Source of the DNA: a virus
Virus record (IMG/VR): IMGVR_UViG_3300027854_000015
Location: 1 to 21,425 of that record
Reading direction: 5' to 3' (one strand)
DNA: 21,425 nucleotides
In this document: piece by piece, positions 1,948-15,401 of the stretch
How positions within the stretch are numbered: position 1 is the stretch's first letter
Layout of the letters: each line of letters starts with the position of its first letter
The notes under the pieces: generated by a model
Seen by the model: the letters and a program-made list of their open reading frames with translations, nothing else
Told to the model about the DNA's origin: nothing
Database searches by the model: none
Position numbers and translations under genes: made by a program

Positions 1948-2646
1948 ATGACTTCATTTTCAGTTTACAAAACTACCTCCTTGGTCAGTACTGGATTTTA
2001 CTATGGAATACACAAAACCTCCCGACCCAACGACAGTTACCTGGGTTCGGGCACAATAATAAAACTGGCTGTCAAGAAATATGGACCGAAGCAATTCAAG
2101 AAAGAAGTTCTCTTCTGTTTTGCAACCCGAAAGGAAGCTGCGGATAAGGAACGAGAATTGATAGCCGCCGCTAAAGGCAACCCCCTTTGCTGGAATATCA
2201 CTCCCGGTGGCGAAGAAGGTTGGGATCAAGTTAACGAGTCCGGAGTTGTCCAAAGATATTGGAGAGCCAATCGTGAAACGATGCGCGAAGCTATTCGGGA
2301 AGCTGTTAAGAGAAAATGGGCCGATCCGGACCATCGTGCCTCCCACCTAGCGGTTAACAATAGTCCTGAGGTAAAGGAGAAGCAACGAGAAGGTCACAGA
2401 AGACAGTGGAAAAGCCTCTCAGCAGTAAAACTTCAAGCCGTTAAACAGGAAAGAAAAGCGAGGTTTGCAGACGAGGATTACAAAAATAGAAAAGTGGCCG
2501 ATTTGATGAAGTACGCAAGGAACCCGGACCGAAAACCAGAACGAACTCAGAACGCTCGTCTTGTCAATCATACCCGTTGGCACGTCAACCGGAGCATCGT
2601 CAAAGAAGACTGCGGCCTTTGTTTACCTAAAAGGGCAATGTCGTAG
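1948..2646 (+). CDS. GIY-YIG homing-type endonuclease 1 (opposite strand)
   Basis: The N-terminal GIY-YIG nuclease fold shows GFYYGIHKT and DSYLGSG (residues 16-35), then KKYG and a KERELI helix carrying the probable catalytic Glu70, then NITPGGEEG. The middle and C-terminal parts are basic helices of the kind used by Seg-type enzymes for DNA binding, with a repeated K/R-x-x-W pattern (VKRKWADPDHR, GHRRQWKS). The C-terminus has NHTRWHVNR followed by CGLC, a combination seen in phage mobile endonucleases. The start is supported by AGAGGA seven bases before the ATG. It is one of only two plus-strand genes here and sits between the SbcD and glycosyltransferase genes, with its start only a few bases from that of sbcD, as expected for a selfish insertion. 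Confidence 0.85.
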   Translation: MTSFSVYKTTSLVSTGFYYGIHKTSRPNDSYLGSGTIIKLAVKKYGPKQFKKEVLFCFATRKEAADKERELIAAAKGNPLCWNITPGGEEGWDQVNESGVVQRYWRANRETMREAIREAVKRKWADPDHRASHLAVNNSPEVKEKQREGHRRQWKSLSAVKLQAVKQERKARFADEDYKNRKVADLMKYARNPDRKPERTQNARLVNHTRWHVNRSIVKEDCGLCLPKRAMS

Positions 2647-6866: not shown

Positions 6867-7415
6867 CTAGTCGACCGAACACAAGCTGCGTAATCCTTCA
6901 AGGGCAACTTGGTCTTCGATACTCAATTTTTTCCGAGGATATTTCTTGCCCAAACGAGAAGTTCGGATTTTGTGACGTGCTTTGATAGAAAGATGGGAAC
7001 CCCGATTATTTTCTTGCATTTCTTGGAGATGAACCTTTGCCTCGGGACGTTTCCAGTATTCCTGTTGCATTTTCTGTAAATGTGTTATCGCTCGGACGCT
7101 CTCTTTATGAGATTTTCTCATCAATTCCCGAGTTTCTTTGGAATGACGATACCCAGAAAGACCTTCTCCACCATCTGTACAATTCCTCAGGCACCCGGTG
7201 CCGAGGTCCCTACGACCATAGTACGCTATCAATAAAATTTCAGCTTGTATAGCGTCCGACTCTGAAGGGAACTCTTGAACAAGAATCCTGGACCTGTCTT
7301 GAGGAGGACGATGGCCAACAAAGGACGTATATGCGCGGCGGCCTTTCCCCTTTCCAACATAATAGGGAGAGCCATCGGTTCTCAACCATAGGTAAGTATA
7401 GTAGACAGTTTTCAA
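6867..7415 (-). CDS. GIY-YIG homing-type endonuclease 2
   Basis: The GIY-YIG core lies at the N-terminus: YYTYLWLRTDGSPYYVGKGKGRRAY (residues 5-29, the YTYLW and YYVGKG halves), a helix with Glu in QAEILLIAYYGRRD, and CTDGGEGLSG. A NUMOD3-like DNA-binding repeat follows (RHSKETRELMRKSHKES, SIKARHKIRTSRLGKKY). It is 182 residues long. The start is a TTG that overlaps the RecA stop (TTGA) with AGGAA five bases before; the stop is immediately adjacent to the Rad50-like ATG. It therefore sits exactly at the junction between two recombination genes, the usual place for free-standing phage endonucleases that avoid damaging their neighbours. Confidence 0.85.
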   Translation of the reverse strand: MKTVYYTYLWLRTDGSPYYVGKGKGRRAYTSFVGHRPPQDRSRILVQEFPSESDAIQAEILLIAYYGRRDLGTGCLRNCTDGGEGLSGYRHSKETRELMRKSHKESVRAITHLQKMQQEYWKRPEAKVHLQEMQENNRGSHLSIKARHKIRTSRLGKKYPRKKLSIEDQVALEGLRSLCSVD

Positions 7416-8708: not shown

Positions 8709-9248
8709 CTAGATACTAGATGTTTTTGAATCTGACCAGATCCCGTAGTGGGCCAACAACAGAGCATCCGCCCTGCCTATGTCCTTCTTTCGGGAAAGTT
8801 CGGAAGCCGCTTGAGGATACAACTGGATAGCACGCTGCCTAGCCGCGTCTTTTTCTTTCGGCATATCTTTCATGAGAACGCTCTTCCAGGTGGTTGGGTG
8901 TACGAGAGAATAGGGAATCTCGAGAGCGGAAAGCATACCTCGCCATAGGCCAAATCCCATGCCAAAATTAAACATAGACGTCACTCCCTGATCCGGCATA
9001 GCGGAAACTTTTTCTAGGACACAGACAACTTCTGCGACTCCAGAAGGGAAGAAAGCGAAGTCCTTGAGAGCGCGAGCCATCGCTATTTCGTTGTATTCGT
9101 TCTTTATTTTGGGTTTTGCTTTGGTGCCGCTTTTCACTTGGAAAAGAGGAGGGTCAAAGAAACGTACTGTCTTTACCCCGTCGCAGATCTCGATTCTTGC
9201 CAAAGCGCCGGTTTGTCCCGGATCTATACCTAAGAAGATTTTTCCCAT
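8709..9248 (-). CDS. ruvC: RuvC-like Holliday junction resolvase
   Basis: RNase H-fold endonuclease that cleaves Holliday junctions and branched phage DNA. The catalytic acids can be placed: GIDPG (Asp9), VLEKV (Glu79), and the C-terminal IGRADALLLAHYG (Asp161 and its neighbours). At 179 residues the length is right for RuvC and its phage relatives. The ATG at 9248 is the first in frame after a stop; it has no Shine-Dalgarno at normal distance, but AGTATTTAAGCC lies just upstream. Its own stop overlaps a similar AGTATCTA element ahead of recA. It is the first gene of the recombination set downstream of the accessory island. Confidence 0.85.
   Translation of the reverse strand: MGKIFLGIDPGQTGALARIEICDGVKTVRFFDPPLFQVKSGTKAKPKIKNEYNEIAMARALKDFAFFPSGVAEVVCVLEKVSAMPDQGVTSMFNFGMGFGLWRGMLSALEIPYSLVHPTTWKSVLMKDMPKEKDAARQRAIQLYPQAASELSRKKDIGRADALLLAHYGIWSDSKTSSI
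8710..8717 (-). promoter_or_regulatory. AGTATCTA motif upstream of recA
   Basis: Overlaps the stop of ruvC and merges into the AGGAGA ribosome binding site of the recombinase gene. It is identical to the copy at 16826-16833. Confidence 0.35.
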
Positions 9249-9254
9249 AGGGCT

Positions 9255-9262
9255 TAAATACT
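9255..9262 (-). promoter_or_regulatory. AGTATTTA motif upstream of ruvC
   Basis: Lies 6 bases upstream of the ruvC ATG, in true intergenic DNA at the head of the recombination cluster. It continues as AAGCC, a tail shared with the copy upstream of the 255-aa gene at 16818. The rest of the 193-base gap (9249-9441) holds no ORF or strong -35/-10 pair that I can defend. This is the best place to look for a transcription start, since the divergent gene at 9442 begins on the other side. Confidence 0.4.
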
Positions 9263-9441
9263 ACTAAACTTACTCCTTTGGGACGAACGAGAGGGCAAAG
9301 TCAATTGATCTTGTCTAAAAGCAAGGCCAAAACCAACACCAATATGAGAACCCAATTGCTGCACGCGCTGAAGAGATCTCGCAAATCTGTAGTTTAACTG
9401 TATTTGACCAATAACCAGTAGAGCTAAACAGGGAGCCCACA

Positions 9442-9891
9442 ATGAAGATTGGCAAAGTTCTGATCGCGATATTCGCCCTTTGTTCGCTATGCTTTTCGAT
9501 GACGCCTGAAGACGCGGTTCTCCAGACGCCAGCGGTTCAAGCACAGTTGGTCACGCTGTACAAGCGGGCGTCTCTCACCTATATGAATTCGGACCATCAC
9601 GAGGAATACTCCTTCACTGTTAAGGCGAACGGTGCGCCGAATGAGATTACCTCCAGCGAGAGCTTCAATTCCAACGTGGTCGTGGTGAAGTCTAGCGACA
9701 AGGCAATAATCCATACGCACCCTGCCACTTGTAAGCCACAGCCTTCTCCTGGGGATATACAGGTAGCGCAGAGGTCGGGGGTGCCTAACTACGAATTAAG
9801 CCGGGATGCTCTCTATGTTGCTATGCCTGATGGAACTGTCCGTAAGGTAGGCAACGTCAACCTGAAGCATGGTGTTCTGGAAATCAAGTAA
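9442..9891 (+). CDS. Exported JAMM/DUF4329-like putative metalloprotease
   Basis: 149 residues on the strand opposite to most genes. The start has AGGGAG seven bases upstream. Residues 1-19 form a Sec signal peptide (MKIGKVLIAIFALCSLCFS) with cleavage after Ser19 likely. The mature part carries HTHP (His91, His93), then PSPGD (Ser102, Asp105) and glutamates near residue 54, which together resemble the JAMM/MPN metal site (E...HxH...SxxD); the spacing from the second His to Ser is one residue longer than the textbook form. DUF4329-type domains share this arrangement and the following region (VPNYELSRDALYVAMPDG). It could be an isopeptidase or peptidase acting outside the cytoplasm. No phage replication role is expected, so it is likely accessory cargo. 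Confidence 0.6.
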   Translation: MKIGKVLIAIFALCSLCFSMTPEDAVLQTPAVQAQLVTLYKRASLTYMNSDHHEEYSFTVKANGAPNEITSSESFNSNVVVVKSSDKAIIHTHPATCKPQPSPGDIQVAQRSGVPNYELSRDALYVAMPDGTVRKVGNVNLKHGVLEIK

Positions 9892-9993
9892 CTCCGCTCG
9901 TTTTGCCCACTCCTGGAACATTGCGATCGGCTAACCACTAGCACACGACAAGTTAGCCTCAAAGTAATATGTTACTCCGCCAGTTGCGGAACG

Positions 9994-10053
9994 TCAAGCA
10001 CAATTCCGATTATCACCTATCGTAAATGGGAATTCTCTCAATAGGTAGTTCAT
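9994..10053 (-). CDS. Possible 19-aa ORF with strong ribosome binding site
   Basis: ATG at 10053 follows GGAGGAGAC, an excellent Shine-Dalgarno though close to the start. The peptide would be MNYLLREFPFTIGDNRNCA. The start context GGAGACATGAA is shared with the secreted-protein gene just upstream (start 10310), so this may be a degenerate copy of a start region or a remnant of a lost gene rather than a functional peptide. The rest of 9892-10070 shows only weak inverted repeats between the convergent genes. Confidence 0.25.
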   Translation of the reverse strand: MNYLLREFPFTIGDNRNCA

Positions 10054-10070
10054 GTCTCCTCCGAAAATGC

Positions 10071-10310
10071 TTACTTCAACCCATCTGGGATCGGCGGATG
10101 CGGAATTGCATCATGACAAGCGATCCCACCATATCGAGCTTCTTGTAGAGACCCTATACAGATTTCAGATACAAGAAAACCGCCCCGATCATCGGGAACT
10201 GTTACTACCATCAAGTTATCTCCCCTATAAATAACTACATCAGAGATATACTTTGGTGTCGATGATGCAAACATCGAAAGACCCAAAAGTACAACCAAAA
10301 TTTTCTTCAT
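10071..10310 (-). CDS. Small exported protein, 79 aa
   Basis: Starts MKKILVVLLGLSMFASS, a Sec signal peptide with basic n-region and hydrophobic core. The mature part of about 60 residues is beta-rich (YISDVVIYRGDNLMVVTVPD) with Cys52 and Cys66 able to form a disulphide, ending in PHPPIPDGLK. AAGGAG lies just ahead of the ATG. It begins 7 bases after the end of the trypsin-like protease gene, suggesting co-expression and possibly a substrate, inhibitor or chaperone role for that protease; this is inference from adjacency only. Confidence 0.6.
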   Translation of the reverse strand: MKKILVVLLGLSMFASSTPKYISDVVIYRGDNLMVVTVPDDRGGFLVSEICIGSLQEARYGGIACHDAIPHPPIPDGLK

Positions 10311-10316
10311 GTCTCC

Positions 10317-11237
10317 TTATATTCCTTTGGCGGACTGGTATATGTGTTTAAGCAAGCGTCCAAAATATTTCATGGCACTATAAACCGGACCCGCTGCCCT
10401 GCGGACTGTCCACGCCAAGACCTTTACCACCTTTGACAGAATAGGAAATGCGAGGATAAGAGCAATCAACGCCAAAGTCGGCTGAAGCATATCAATATTC
10501 GTAGCAGCGGGAGTAGGTGCGGGTGCATTGACGGATACGGCCACTGACGTGCGATTGTCGGGCAAGTAAACAAACGTGCCGTTTCCTTCAGCCTGCGCGA
10601 TTTGGTCGGAAGTAAACGCAAGCGGGTAGACACCCGCAAACATTCCGTATTCAATGCCGTATGTCAAGACGCCCGCGATGTGGCTGTCCTCTGCACTGAA
10701 TACCGCGCTACCAGAATCACCGCCAACCACGGGGCCGCTCAGCATGAGAAAGGAGCTTACCACGTCTATTACGTCACCGTCGAGTGGGTTTATGACCGAC
10801 CCTGTAACATATCCCTCCCGGTATTGATTGTTAATCATGCCCGGATTTCCCCACATGTAATAGTGGTCGCCCTGCCTTAAAGGAAGAGCGGAACCATAAT
10901 CAACTAAATTCTTGAAAGAGACGCCGGGGATAACGAGAAGCATGTGGTCTTGGTGGTCTAGATATCTCTCGGAGACATCCAAAGGATGTTGGAATGGCTT
11001 TCGGCTCTGGTCGAGGTACACAACGGCACCAGCAATGTTGCAGTGCTCGGCTGTGAGCAGGACGTGCTCGGAGATGGCAGTCGCAGAGCAACCGGCACTC
11101 TCATGTTCCTTTTCGTTCAACATAACGATAGAGTGAGTTGCCTTGCGCTGCACGACCTTCATCGCCGGTGTAACGGTGGCGAACAATGCATAGGGCGCGA
11201 GCAAAAGCCAGAGTAATGTTTTACGAAGGAAGTTCAT
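10317..11237 (-). CDS. Exported trypsin-like serine protease with C-terminal membrane anchor
   Basis: 306 residues. An N-terminal signal peptide (about 1-20, FLRKTLLWLLLAPYALFA) precedes a chymotrypsin-fold protease: His65 in LLTAEHC, a likely Asp97 in LDHQDHMLL, and Ser175 in GGDSGSAVF, followed by IAGVLTYG. Cys50 and Cys66 bracket the catalytic His as in the usual disulphide. A linker rich in Ala, Pro and Thr (about 236-246) leads to a hydrophobic helix at about 251-275 and a basic 35-residue tail, so the protein would be held in the membrane with the protease outside. AGGA six bases before the ATG supports the start. Tailed phages rarely encode such enzymes; a role in envelope modification, superinfection exclusion or defence is possible but not shown. 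Confidence 0.75.
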   Translation of the reverse strand: MNFLRKTLLWLLLAPYALFATVTPAMKVVQRKATHSIVMLNEKEHESAGCSATAISEHVLLTAEHCNIAGAVVYLDQSRKPFQHPLDVSERYLDHQDHMLLVIPGVSFKNLVDYGSALPLRQGDHYYMWGNPGMINNQYREGYVTGSVINPLDGDVIDVVSSFLMLSGPVVGGDSGSAVFSAEDSHIAGVLTYGIEYGMFAGVYPLAFTSDQIAQAEGNGTFVYLPDNRTSVAVSVNAPAPTPAATNIDMLQPTLALIALILAFPILSKVVKVLAWTVRRAAGPVYSAMKYFGRLLKHIYQSAKGI

Positions 11238-11331
11238 AAAGCGTCCTGGCGGCGTAGTCAGAGCATTTCGCCGTGGATTTCCCGTCTACTTTCGTAGCCC
11301 TCTGCTCGGGTACTAATCGAGGCCCAGAAAG

Positions 11332-12063
11332 TTAGATTGTTAAAACCTGGACTGGGAAGCCCGCTGACTCTTTTTCTTTTTCCAAGAAACACTGCTTGAT
11401 GGTTTGCATCCAGATCTTTTTGTCACTTCGTTTCAAGGGATCATCTTGCCAGCGGTAGCCGCGAGCCTTTGCCAAATCGCGATCATCGTAAGAAACTAAT
11501 GCCTGAATGTCAATGTTTGGTTGTCTAGCGAGAAACAGAACCCGTTCCAGATCGTACTGATCAAGGATACGAAGCATAGTCATAACGTCGAAAATGGCTC
11601 TATGAGGGAAAGGATTTAGGAAGGAGTGGTCCGCCGCCATATATGAAAGTTTGCGACTCATCTTTTCCGGGAACGGAAGTTCGATGTCCGTGTTGGTGTC
11701 AATCCACAGTTTGTTCGGATCAGCATCGTAGCCGGGGCACTTACACCAAGCATTGAAGAAAGGACGGTCAAACCTTGTACCGTTGTGAGCACAAGCCACG
11801 TCGGCTGTCTGGTACCAGGACAGCACTTGCTTTAACGCCCGTTCGCTTTGGTAACCATACTTACCACAAAGTTCCGGCGTGATGCCTGTAACCCCGGAAA
11901 CAACCGAATCCCACACGGCATTCGGGCCAGGATCAACAAGGAATCCCATAACTTTGACTGGTGCTCTTAGAGAAGTTTCCCAAAGCACCATGCCAACTTC
12001 TGTTATGGAGTTTACTACCGGGTCTAGGCCGGTGGTTTCGAAATCCAGTCCGAGGATTAGCAT
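11332..12063 (-). CDS. DnaQ-like DEDDh 3'-5' exonuclease
   Basis: Exonuclease-superfamily protein of 243 residues. Exo I is DFETTGLDP (Asp7, Glu9), Exo II is VACAHNGTRFDRPFF (near residues 89-103), and Exo III is PHRAIFDVMT (near 153-162), with His giving the DEDDh type. The C-terminal segment (LAKARGYRW...KKIWMQTI) resembles an extension found in phage and bacterial epsilon-like exonucleases. It probably proofreads or trims for the phage polymerase, which is not in the window. Its ATG overlaps the end of GIY-YIG gene 3 by 7 bases. A 94-base gap after the stop, before the protease gene, holds no recognisable feature. Confidence 0.85.
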   Translation of the reverse strand: MLILGLDFETTGLDPVVNSITEVGMVLWETSLRAPVKVMGFLVDPGPNAVWDSVVSGVTGITPELCGKYGYQSERALKQVLSWYQTADVACAHNGTRFDRPFFNAWCKCPGYDADPNKLWIDTNTDIELPFPEKMSRKLSYMAADHSFLNPFPHRAIFDVMTMLRILDQYDLERVLFLARQPNIDIQALVSYDDRDLAKARGYRWQDDPLKRSDKKIWMQTIKQCFLEKEKESAGFPVQVLTI

Positions 12064-12770
12064 GCTGGTCTACCTAATACCGGGGTTCTGTTTTTGGGAA
12101 CAATTCCCCTCTCCTTCATAGTTGCGCTGATCTTTCGTTTGGTCTCCTCCGAGCGTTTCTGAACACCTATCTTCCCCTTGTTCCAGGGAATACGGCCTTT
12201 CTTCGCCCGACTCATCTTTGTTCTTGATTCTCCTGAATGGTGAAACCCCTTTGGTAGACCGTGGTGCCCTTTGACCATAACCTTTTTCCACGTCTCTTTC
12301 TGTTTCTCAGTCTGACCCCTCAACAATTTCGTGACGCGCACTTTGGCGATAGTCTCAGGAAGGCGGGCAAGTTCCAGATTGGCCAACTGGAGATCCGTCT
12401 TGGGAGCGGCTTTCATCTTTGCTATGGTTTCGGGGGAGGGTTTCCACCCCTTATTGACGTAAGCCGTCCCCTCACCGCCTGGTCGAAGATTGTACCCAAT
12501 AGAGGGGTTCTGTGAATCGTATTCCGCAACTAGAACTCGTTCCCAAAAGCATATCTCCTTGTCTGACTTCAGCGAAGATATAAGGGGAAAGATGGCCCAA
12601 ACATACGGCGGGTACTTTCGCATGGCAGCAAACAGGTGAGAACGGCCCTCGTATCGTTCAGTTCTAGCTGAGGACAGTTTGTCGCGGAGATACTTCTTCA
12701 GATCAGAGGTGATAGTCTTGCCGATGTAGATCTTGCCGTTTTCCTGGTTGAGGATCATGTACACAAACAT
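12057..12770 (-). CDS. GIY-YIG homing-type endonuclease 3 with NUMOD3 repeats
   Basis: Begins MFVYMILNQENGKIYIGKTI, a clear GIY-YIG motif pair, with a helix carrying Glu (FWERVLVAEYD) and GYNLRPGGEG closing the nuclease domain by residue 101. Then come NUMOD3-type repeats (PSPETIAKMKAA, SGESRTKMSRAKKGR, SEETKRKISATMKERG) and lysine-rich linkers that bind DNA in the minor groove in related enzymes. It is 237 residues long. It sits between the ssDNA-binding protein and dnaQ genes, overlapping dnaQ. The ribosome binding site AGGAGC lies in the 3' arm of a hairpin immediately upstream, so translation is probably restrained when the message comes from upstream promoters, as described for I-TevI of T4. 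Confidence 0.88.
   Translation of the reverse strand: MFVYMILNQENGKIYIGKTITSDLKKYLRDKLSSARTERYEGRSHLFAAMRKYPPYVWAIFPLISSLKSDKEICFWERVLVAEYDSQNPSIGYNLRPGGEGTAYVNKGWKPSPETIAKMKAAPKTDLQLANLELARLPETIAKVRVTKLLRGQTEKQKETWKKVMVKGHHGLPKGFHHSGESRTKMSRAKKGRIPWNKGKIGVQKRSEETKRKISATMKERGIVPKNRTPVLGRPAC
12075..12081 (-). promoter_or_regulatory. GGTATTA motif upstream of dnaQ
   Basis: Falls inside the last codons of the endonuclease gene, 11 bases before the dnaQ ATG. If it works as a promoter, dnaQ could be expressed independently of the inserted endonuclease. Confidence 0.3.
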
Positions 12771-12772
12771 AA

Positions 12773-12804
12773 AAAGCTCCTACAGTTGATACTGTAAGAG
12801 CTTT
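12773..12804 (-). promoter_or_regulatory. Hairpin hiding the ribosome binding site of GIY-YIG gene 3 (also terminator-like)
   Basis: Arms 12773-12786 and 12791-12804 form a 14-bp stem with one G-U pair and a 4-base loop. On the minus-strand RNA the 3' arm contains AGGAGC, the only Shine-Dalgarno for the ATG at 12770, and is followed by a U-run that gives the structure an intrinsic-terminator look. It could thus both end the ssDNA-binding protein message (stop at 12831) and block endonuclease translation. The loop and adjacent bases carry an AGTATCA element. Confidence 0.75.
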
Positions 12805-12830
12805 AGATAGTCCGTTTAGCTACGGATGAG

Positions 12831-14154: not shown

Positions 14155-14967
14155 CTATCCAGAAAAGTTACTAAAGTTACCTGTGATACTGGGATTCCAG
14201 ATATTCGTCACCCGCAAAGCGCAGACTAGAGGAGGGTATTTCTGAGCACGCCACCTTGAAAGTTCCCTAATGCAGTCATACACTTTAACCAGATCCAAAT
14301 TGATCCTCTGCATAACTTTGAATTTTGCCATCGAGACACCAAATTTACGGGCCGCGTCCTGATCCCCTTCTTTTGCAAAGACGTATCCCACCAAGAAACG
14401 ATACAGGGTGTTCAGCCGTAAGCCGGGGTCTATCCCCTCAGGCATCCAAGCAATCGGCTTCTCCCAGGGATCTGGCCAACGTTCTTTGTTTTCCGAGAGG
14501 GGCGGGCCAACAAGTAAGCGAGCTGCCTCCCAAATCGCGGCCCGGATGTCGACTATCTCTTTAGTCAACAATTGGTCCGACACGCGCTGTACCAACTTAG
14601 TGTCTGCCGGAACATCCAAAAGGGTAGCAGCATACTTCACCAGGGCATTGGCCCCGGCGCTTCCCTTCTCAATAGAATCCAAGGACCAGATTCCAGATAG
14701 TGCTTTGGTGTTGGGAGACAACTCGAGGCACCGGGGAGATTCTACCCGGTAGAGCAGGGATTCCTCTTTGCCTAACAGATCTTCATCATGTAGAATCTCT
14801 ACGAACTTACAAAACACGCAAAGGATTTGCTCGGCGAAACGAACTTGCGCAGGATCATCTCCCACCAAAATATTGTAACGACGATAAGTCTTCTGCAAAA
14901 GGAGCGAAGGAGTAGTTGGCCAAACGGTCGCCCGGACGCCTGGTCTAAGTTTTCCCGATTCAGACAT
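14155..14967 (-). CDS. Hypothetical protein, 270 aa
   Basis: Not recognised. The second of two tandem ATGs (14967) is chosen because AAGGAG lies five bases before it and its first base overlaps the MgtC stop (TGATG). The protein starts MSESGKLRPGVR and is mainly helical, with a KEIVDIRAAIWEAARLLVG helix in the middle and, near residues 215-245, FAKEGDQDAARKFGVSMAKFKV, which has the shape of a helix-turn-helix. It has no metal site, Walker motif or membrane segment. The position between MgtC and HU does not reveal its role; a DNA-binding regulator is one weak possibility. Confidence 0.65.
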   Translation of the reverse strand: MSESGKLRPGVRATVWPTTPSLLLQKTYRRYNILVGDDPAQVRFAEQILCVFCKFVEILHDEDLLGKEESLLYRVESPRCLELSPNTKALSGIWSLDSIEKGSAGANALVKYAATLLDVPADTKLVQRVSDQLLTKEIVDIRAAIWEAARLLVGPPLSENKERWPDPWEKPIAWMPEGIDPGLRLNTLYRFLVGYVFAKEGDQDAARKFGVSMAKFKVMQRINLDLVKVYDCIRELSRWRAQKYPPLVCALRVTNIWNPSITGNFSNFSG

Positions 14968-15401
14968 CATTCTCCTTTGTGGAAGGGGTGCCAGTTTTCC
15001 AAAGGACGAAGCACAGCATTGGTGAAGAGAACCAAGGCAGTCCCCACTAGAGCTTGTTTCCAAAGCCCCATTCCACAGAGAGTTCCTACGGCGGCGGAGC
15101 ACCAAAGGGTTGCTGCGGTGTCCAACCCTTTAACGGATAGACCTTCTCGCAAAATGGCTCCCGCCCCTAAAAATCCGATACCGGTAACAACTTGTGCGGG
15201 TATCCTCAAGATCTCCCCTTGGACTGGGTAGAAAAACGAAATCAAACAGAAGGACGCGGCCCCGGTTGAAACCAGAACGTTGGTCCTGAGACCCGCTACT
15301 CGTTGGTGTATCTGTCTCTCCAAACCAATAGCCCCCCCTAAAGCCATAGCGATTGCTAGATAACCGGCCCACGGGATTCCGAGATTGATTGGAAGGTTCA
15401 A
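14967..15401 (-). CDS. mgtC: MgtC/SapB-family inner membrane protein
   Basis: 144 residues with about four membrane helices and the family's signature sequences: GGAIGLERQ...RVAGLRTNVLV (residues 22-45), GIGFLGAGAI (near 74-83), and GLDTAATLW..AAVG (92-105). In bacteria MgtC aids growth in low magnesium and inhibits the F1Fo ATP synthase; short one-domain forms like this one are common. The start is a TTG at 15401 overlapping the upstream stop by four bases; it has no clear Shine-Dalgarno but any later start would cut the first helix. Translational coupling to the deoxyribosyltransferase gene is likely. It is an unexpected gene in a phage replication operon and probably a host-derived acquisition. 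Confidence 0.88.
   Translation of the reverse strand: MNLPINLGIPWAGYLAIAMALGGAIGLERQIHQRVAGLRTNVLVSTGAASFCLISFFYPVQGEILRIPAQVVTGIGFLGAGAILREGLSVKGLDTAATLWCSAAVGTLCGMGLWKQALVGTALVLFTNAVLRPLENWHPFHKGE

What the first reader, a model, noticed from the sequence alone, without database searches (positions are those of the whole stretch)
9442..11237. Exported-protease island inside a replication cluster
Between ruvC and dnaQ lie three products with signal peptides: a JAMM/DUF4329-like protein on the opposite strand, a small disulphide-capable protein, and a trypsin-like protease with a C-terminal membrane anchor and basic tail. None is expected in DNA replication. A membrane-tethered protease facing out of the cytoplasm together with a second putative peptidase could process envelope proteins, block superinfecting phages or counter a surface defence. 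The small protein next to the protease could be its inhibitor or substrate.
Basis: partly seen in the sequence, partly recalled or inferred. Interest (0 to 1): 0.68.

Follow-up and report, generated by a model that had tools for sequence, protein, structure and literature searches.

The report
Exported protease genes in soil jumbo phage
A soil-bacterium phage carries, inserted among its DNA-replication genes, a membrane-anchored protein-cutting enzyme with a small partner and, separately, an exported zinc-hydrolase-like protein; other phages carry each enzyme alone in other settings, so these are real accessory genes but not one three-gene system.

Summary
The three ORFs exist at the stated coordinates and each begins with a signal-peptide-like segment. 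Of 93 ORFs of 60 aa or more in the window, they are the only ATG-started ones with such an N-terminus. The trypsin-like protein keeps its triad (H65, D97, S175), a conserved Cys pair, a C-terminal membrane segment and a basic tail, and is under strong purifying selection. The opposite-strand protein keeps a JAMM-type motif (E55, H91-x-H93, S102, D105), and its model resembles JAB/MPN structures.

The window is colinear with Tunturiibacter jumbo phage Tunturi_5 (Acidobacteriota host), which has no detected copy of these genes: its SSB and RuvC genes are adjacent.

Co-occurrence fails. The protease recurs without the other two in five phage contigs, always between a dNMP-kinase gene and a coiled-coil-like protein gene, near probable late/lysis genes. 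The JAMM domain recurs only as a C-terminal extension of phage portal proteins. The small protein has no detected relative.

Best reading: two independently acquired accessory units. One is a periplasm-facing, inner-membrane-tethered serine protease, probably cleaving envelope proteins, most likely to aid lysis. The other is an exported Tox-JAB-2/DUF4329-like hydrolase. Superinfection exclusion stays possible but untested.

The parts
10317..11237 (-). Trypsin-like serine protease, 306 aa: signal peptide (residues 1 to about 20), catalytic domain with H65, D97, S175 and cysteines 50/66, C-terminal TM segment and basic tail
   Evidence: Pfam Trypsin and PHROG 9683; triad and Cys pair invariant in six homologues; purifying selection
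11043..11045 (-). Catalytic His65 codon
   Evidence: Invariant column of A4
10947..10949 (-). Catalytic Asp97 codon
   Evidence: Invariant column of A4
10713..10715 (-). Catalytic Ser175 codon (GDSGS)
   Evidence: Invariant column of A4
10413..10469 (-). C-terminal membrane segment of the protease (residues 257-275)
   Evidence: Mean hydropathy 2.27 over 19 residues; present in 4 of 6 homologues
10320..10412 (-). Basic C-terminal tail of the protease (residues 276-306)
   Evidence: Net charge +6 in the last 30 residues
10308..10319 (-). Protease stop, Shine-Dalgarno and small-gene start fused: TAAGGAGACATG, so the two are probably one translational unit
   Evidence: Sequence
10071..10310 (-). 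Small exported protein, 79 aa, two cysteines (51, 65), no known relative
   Evidence: ATG with Shine-Dalgarno and signal-peptide-like N-terminus; no relatives
9442..9891 (+). Exported JAMM/Tox-JAB-2-like (DUF4329-like) protein, 149 aa, on the opposite strand
   Evidence: Weak Pfam DUF4329 and Prok-JAB; JAB/MPN fold; 46% identical to portal C-terminal domains
9604..9606 (+). Putative motif glutamate E55 codon
   Evidence: Invariant in A5, unlike E68
9712..9756 (+). HTHP...S..D motif (H91, H93, S102, D105)
   Evidence: Invariant in A5
9249..12830 (.). Interval between ruvC and ssb that holds extra genes relative to Tunturi_5: GIY-YIG gene, dnaQ, protease, small gene, JAMM gene
   Evidence: Synteny with L029

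Best explanation
Two separate, horizontally acquired accessory units sit side by side in the replication block of a Tunturi_5-like jumbo phage, probably of Acidobacteriota (Gram-negative). Unit 1 is the protease and its coupled small gene. The protease is exported by its signal peptide, can form a disulphide in the periplasm, stays tethered to the inner membrane by its C-terminal helix with the basic tail in the cytoplasm, and cleaves envelope proteins during infection. The most likely purpose is to weaken the envelope for lysis (about 0.35), ahead of superinfection exclusion or counter-defence (about 0.25). The small exported protein is most simply its inhibitor, substrate or folding partner (weak). 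Unit 2 is a standalone exported Tox-JAB-2-like metallo-hydrolase read from the other strand, drawn from a domain pool that also decorates phage portal proteins, and not part of the protease's pathway. Shown: gene structures, export-like N-termini, catalytic residues, selection, insertion relative to Tunturi_5, separate occurrence elsewhere. Inferred: host, topology, activity, substrates, timing, purpose.
For: Triad and Cys pair invariant to 27% identity; catalytic domain pS 0.86 against pN 0.115. Protease 77-80% identical in the catalytic domain to phages L002, L003 and L008, whereas RecA is only about 25-31% identical and almost nothing else matches: horizontal exchange. Ten window proteins colinear with Tunturi_5, where SSB and RuvC are neighbours and neither enzyme is detected. 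In five of five relatives the protease follows a dNMP kinase and precedes a conserved coiled-coil-like protein with a weak Rz-spanin hit; tail genes upstream and lysozyme-like genes a few kb away in some. Tunturi_4 has kinase, three unknowns and endolysin in a row. Neither enzyme occurs with the other in relatives.
Against: In the window the protease lies among replication genes, with no lysis gene nearby, so a late lysis role needs separate timing. The Rz-like hit is weak (E=0.04) and a head-morphogenesis family scores better on the same protein. L009 and L010 homologues lack the anchor. Most contigs are fragments, so absence is soft evidence. No activity, localisation or host was measured.
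Confidence: 0.45

Rival explanations
1. Superinfection exclusion or envelope counter-defence: the tethered protease is made early and removes receptors, incoming phage proteins or membrane-located defence components from the periplasmic face.
For: In the window the gene is co-directional with replication genes, 94 bases after dnaQ with no promoter match in the gap, which suggests early or middle expression; membrane-tethered exported design.
Against: In five relatives it sits beside probable late and lysis genes instead. Paper searches found no protease-based exclusion system, in an open-licence library only.
Confidence: 0.25
2. The three genes are one functional island: protease, partner and second peptidase act together on the envelope.
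For: Adjacent; all three exported, the only such ATG-started ORFs in the window; protease and small gene are coupled.
Against: JAMM gene is on the other strand; relatives of each enzyme lack the others; JAMM relatives are portal extensions.
Confidence: 0.12
3. The JAMM protein is a phage-carried secreted toxin or effector of the Tox-JAB-2 type, released to affect other bacteria or the host, rather than an envelope processing enzyme.
For: Tox-JAB-2 equals DUF4329, a polymorphic-toxin tip; secreted versions noted in Xanthomonas phages (PMC3482391); complete motif kept.
Against: No immunity-like neighbour recognised; a signal peptide alone reaches only the periplasm of a Gram-negative host; sequence link to DUF4329 is weak; the only close relatives sit on portal proteins, which suggests a virion or DNA-associated role.
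Confidence: 0.3

Closest known systems
PHROG 9683 phage 'protease' and the chymotrypsin fold (Pfam Trypsin, Trypsin_2; DegQ and glutamyl-endopeptidase sequences in the PDB)
   Same: Triad, GDSGS motif, Cys pair beside the active-site His; family matches
   Different: No PDZ domain as in DegQ; a C-terminal TM anchor and basic tail; no relative found in cultured phages or in the bacterial and archaeal genome collection
Tox-JAB-2 / DUF4329 (Zhang et al. 2012, PMC3482391)
   Same: E, H[ST]H, S, D motif; JAB fold; exported, as for the secreted phage versions mentioned there
   Different: Below the Pfam gathering score; not on an RHS or other toxin carrier; closest relatives are portal extensions
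MuF-linked phage toxins (Jamet et al. 2017, PMC5576092)
   Same: Toxin-type domain at the C-terminus of a phage head protein near the portal, comparable to the portal-JAMM proteins L004, L005 and L024
   Different: Here the carrier is the portal protein itself; JAB and DUF4329 are not mentioned in that paper's main text; the window protein is free-standing
Tunturiibacter phage Tunturi_5 (PP885688, PMC11924767)
   Same: Colinear replication and recombination block, ten matching proteins
   Different: SSB and RuvC adjacent; neither exported enzyme detected
Phage lysis cassettes (holin, endolysin, Rz-type spanin)
   Same: Relatives of the protease sit next to a coiled-coil-like protein and near lysozyme-like genes
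   Different: A protease is not a known part of such cassettes, as far as I know; the window copy is not in one

Membership tests
Trypsin-like serine peptidase (Pfam PF00089) | Profile match above the curated cut-off | tested here: met
   22.4 bits against 20.6
Trypsin-like serine peptidase (Pfam PF00089) | His-Asp-Ser triad with GDSG | tested here: met
   H65, D97, S175 invariant in six homologues
Trypsin-like serine peptidase (Pfam PF00089) | Double beta-barrel fold | tested here: inconclusive
   Model pLDDT 57.5; best matches are chymotrypsin-fold proteases, Z about 8
Trypsin-like serine peptidase (Pfam PF00089) | Proteolytic activity | not testable with these tools
   Needs purified protein
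Tox-JAB-2 / DUF4329 (PF14220) | Profile match above the curated cut-off | tested here: not met
   16.7 bits against 28.6
Tox-JAB-2 / DUF4329 (PF14220) | E, H[ST]H, S, D motif | tested here: met
   Invariant in three members; motif as listed in PMC3482391
Tox-JAB-2 / DUF4329 (PF14220) | Toxin role with cognate immunity protein | not tested
   Neighbouring small protein has no family match; no immunity search beyond that
JAB/MPN superfamily | JAB/MPN fold | tested here: met
   Model pLDDT 79; AF2198 Z 8.3, 2.8 A over 91 residues, list dominated by JAB/MPN; plain Foldseek weak, deaminases first
Phage lysis protein | Genomic association with holin, endolysin or spanin genes | tested here: inconclusive
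   Relatives adjoin a coiled-coil-like protein with a weak Rz hit, lysozyme-like genes within several kb in L009 and L010; not so in the window
Superinfection-exclusion protein | Protects the infected or expressing cell from other phages | not testable with these tools
   Needs plating tests

The most novel reading that the evidence does not exclude
Phages of Acidobacteriota use an exported, membrane-tethered serine protease as a dedicated proteolytic step of lysis (cutting proteins that hold the envelope together), an envelope-breaching principle distinct from holin, endolysin and spanin, and a jumbo phage has borrowed it into its replication block.
Probability: 0.17. Interest if true: 0.7.

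Novelty: new variant of a known kind. Interest (0 to 1): 0.42.

Why it matters
An exported protease kept at one locus across strongly diverged phages has no described function that I could find. If it acts in lysis or exclusion, it adds proteolysis to the ways phages handle the Gram-negative envelope. The JAMM domain shared between portal proteins and a free exported protein shows one enzymatic domain moving between virion and secreted settings, and gives a concrete place to test what phage JAB domains do. Tunturi phages and their hosts are in culture (PMC11924767), so related systems can be approached in the laboratory.

Tried and rejected
Whole-window megablast against cultured phages: no match. 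tblastn of the protease, its L009 and L010 homologues and the JAMM protein against cultured phages: none. Both genome-contig scans (JAMM and protease alignments): no relative. Searches for the small protein: none; without a positive control these are soft negatives. L011 as a protease relative (26%, E=2e-4) was set aside: no clean ORF with the same layout. Sigma-70 promoters near the three genes: at chance level. Rfam and tRNA: nothing. A T5-like label for the L002-type phages was dropped: the A1-like DNA-transfer protein is widespread, although T5 also has the kinase near its lysis genes. Xanthomonas phage OP1, the literature example of a secreted Tox-JAB-2, was not found under the accession I tried. 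A ubiquitin-type substrate for the JAMM protein was considered; nothing here supports one. Paper searches for protease-based exclusion or lysis: no relevant paper.

Full report
What is there. The window is a 21.4-kb linear viral fragment. The three ORFs are as stated: JAMM-like 9442-9891 (+), small 10071-10310 (-), trypsin-like 10317-11237 (-). Their export signals are not a chance pattern: of 93 ORFs of at least 60 aa on both strands, five have a basic, strongly hydrophobic N-terminus, and the three with ATG starts are exactly these genes; the JAMM and small genes also have a Shine-Dalgarno site. This was a hydropathy test, not a trained signal-peptide predictor.

Protease. Pfam Trypsin is above its gathering score, and PHROG 9683 'protease' matches. 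Six homologues down to 27% identity keep H65, D97, S175 (GDSGS) and two cysteines at the positions of the classic disulphide beside the active-site histidine. The catalytic domain is under strong purifying selection (window against L002: pS 0.86, pN 0.115). The C-terminal anchor region evolves fast; between L002 and L003 the catalytic domain has dS 0.037 but the tail dS 0.70, which suggests a recombination boundary, so the anchor may be an exchangeable module. The window, L002, L003 and L008 proteins have the anchor and basic tail; L009 and L010 do not. The structure model was poor (pLDDT 57.5) but still drew chymotrypsin-fold proteases.

JAMM protein. Profile scores are weak, so the case rests on motif and fold: E55, H91-x-H93-P, S102 and D105 are invariant in the three distinct members, with HSHP in L024. 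E68 is not conserved, which points to E55 as the motif glutamate. The model (pLDDT 79, pTM 0.75) aligns best with JAB/MPN proteins (AF2198, Z 8.3), which dominate the list. Plain Foldseek placed cytidine deaminases first, at weak scores; Zhang et al. class Tox-JAB-2 under the deaminase fold (PMC3482391). That paper equates Tox-JAB-2 with DUF4329 in Pfam, notes secreted versions in Xanthomonas phages, and suspects nuclease rather than peptidase action for toxin JAB domains.

Portal link. The only relatives found are the C-terminal extension of phage portal proteins (Pfam Phage_portal E=1e-70 for L004) in L004, L005 and L024, 46-47% identical over the domain, each followed by a ClpP-like protease gene, probably the prohead protease. 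The same domain therefore exists on a virion protein and as a free exported protein.

Setting of the window. Ten window proteins match the 309-kb jumbo phage Tunturi_5, which infects Tunturiibacter (Acidobacteriota), in the same order: helicase, DnaB, three unknowns, SSB, RecA/UvsX, SbcC-like, a small unknown, SbcD, at 26-45% identity. There SSB is followed directly by RuvC and UvsX (phage described in PMC11924767). The window has a GIY-YIG gene, dnaQ, the protease, the small gene and the JAMM gene between SSB and RuvC, and Tunturi_5 has no detectable protease or JAMM homologue. They look like accessory insertions in a conserved block; a host in Acidobacteriota is inferred from this kinship.

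Origin of the protease. The closest homologues are in other phages, L002 (109.7-kb contig G001), L003 and L008, at 77-80% identity in the catalytic domain. The RecA proteins of these phages are only 25-31% identical to the window's, and the fully retrieved G001 matches little else but GIY-YIG endonucleases and a glycosyltransferase. This indicates horizontal exchange between phage lineages. G001 shares UvsX, primase-helicase and helicase with Tunturi_4, another Tunturiibacter phage (40-46%), so a common host group is plausible.

Where the protease normally sits. In L002, L003, L008, L009 and L010 it follows a dNMP-kinase-like gene (directly, or after an HNH gene in L003) and precedes, directly or after further small genes, a coiled-coil-like protein with relatives across the set. 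That protein has a hydrophobic N-terminal segment above my threshold in L009 and L010 only, a weak Rz-like hit (E=0.04) and a better hit to a head-morphogenesis family. Upstream lie a small one-TM protein and, in L002 and L010, tail-fibre-like genes on the same strand; lysozyme-like genes lie several kb away on the other strand in L009 and L010. Tunturi_4 has kinase, three unknowns and endolysin in a row after its tail genes, and T5 has the kinase near holin and lysozyme. This points to a late/lysis neighbourhood without proving a lysis role.

Do the three genes belong together? Probably not. The protease contigs show no JAMM domain and no small protein; the JAMM contigs show no protease. Most are fragments, but two protease contigs exceed 100 kb. 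Within the window the protease and small gene are coupled (TAAGGAGACATG), so they are probably one unit; the JAMM gene is on the other strand.

Mechanism. Signal peptide, conserved cysteine pair and C-terminal anchor imply a periplasm-facing enzyme tethered to the inner membrane. Cleavage of envelope proteins follows if it is active. Lysis assistance is favoured by the conserved neighbourhood, exclusion by the position among replication genes in the window; neither is shown. The small protein as inhibitor is a guess from gene order. The JAMM protein would be a zinc hydrolase of unknown substrate in the periplasm or outside.

Verdict. Paper searches found no described exported phage protease of this kind, within the limits of an open-licence library.

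Noticed in passing
L004:530-2533, L005:41-1222, L024:4402-6414: Phage portal proteins carry a JAMM/Tox-JAB-2-like domain as a C-terminal extension, just upstream of a ClpP-like protease gene. A virion-borne version of a toxin-type domain, function unknown.
   Followed up: partly
L002:7947-8861 and L003:1156-2070: The protease catalytic domains are 97% identical (dS 0.037) but the C-terminal anchor regions only 57% (dS 0.70), suggesting the anchor was swapped by recombination next to HNH genes.
   Followed up: partly
window 1948-2646, 6867-7415, 12057-12770: Three GIY-YIG-like genes are scattered through the replication block; relatives of the second occur at about 45-53% identity in the protease-bearing and the JAMM-bearing phages, a possible vehicle of gene exchange.
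   Followed up: partly
window 14967-15401: A clear MgtC-family membrane protein gene (Pfam MgtC E=2.6e-39) lies among replication genes and overlaps the listed 5' end of the next ORF (14155-15105), whose true start is probably further downstream.
   Followed up: no
window 8709-9248: The ruvC gene has a GIDPGQTGA motif and the right position but no Pfam hit, and no tblastn match to the RuvC-like protein at the same locus of Tunturi_5.
   Followed up: no
L029:1-549 (Tunturi_5 gp205): Tunturi_5 carries an annotated ADP-ribosyltransferase exoenzyme-like gene upstream of the same replication block, another accessory toxin-type gene in this lineage.
   Followed up: no
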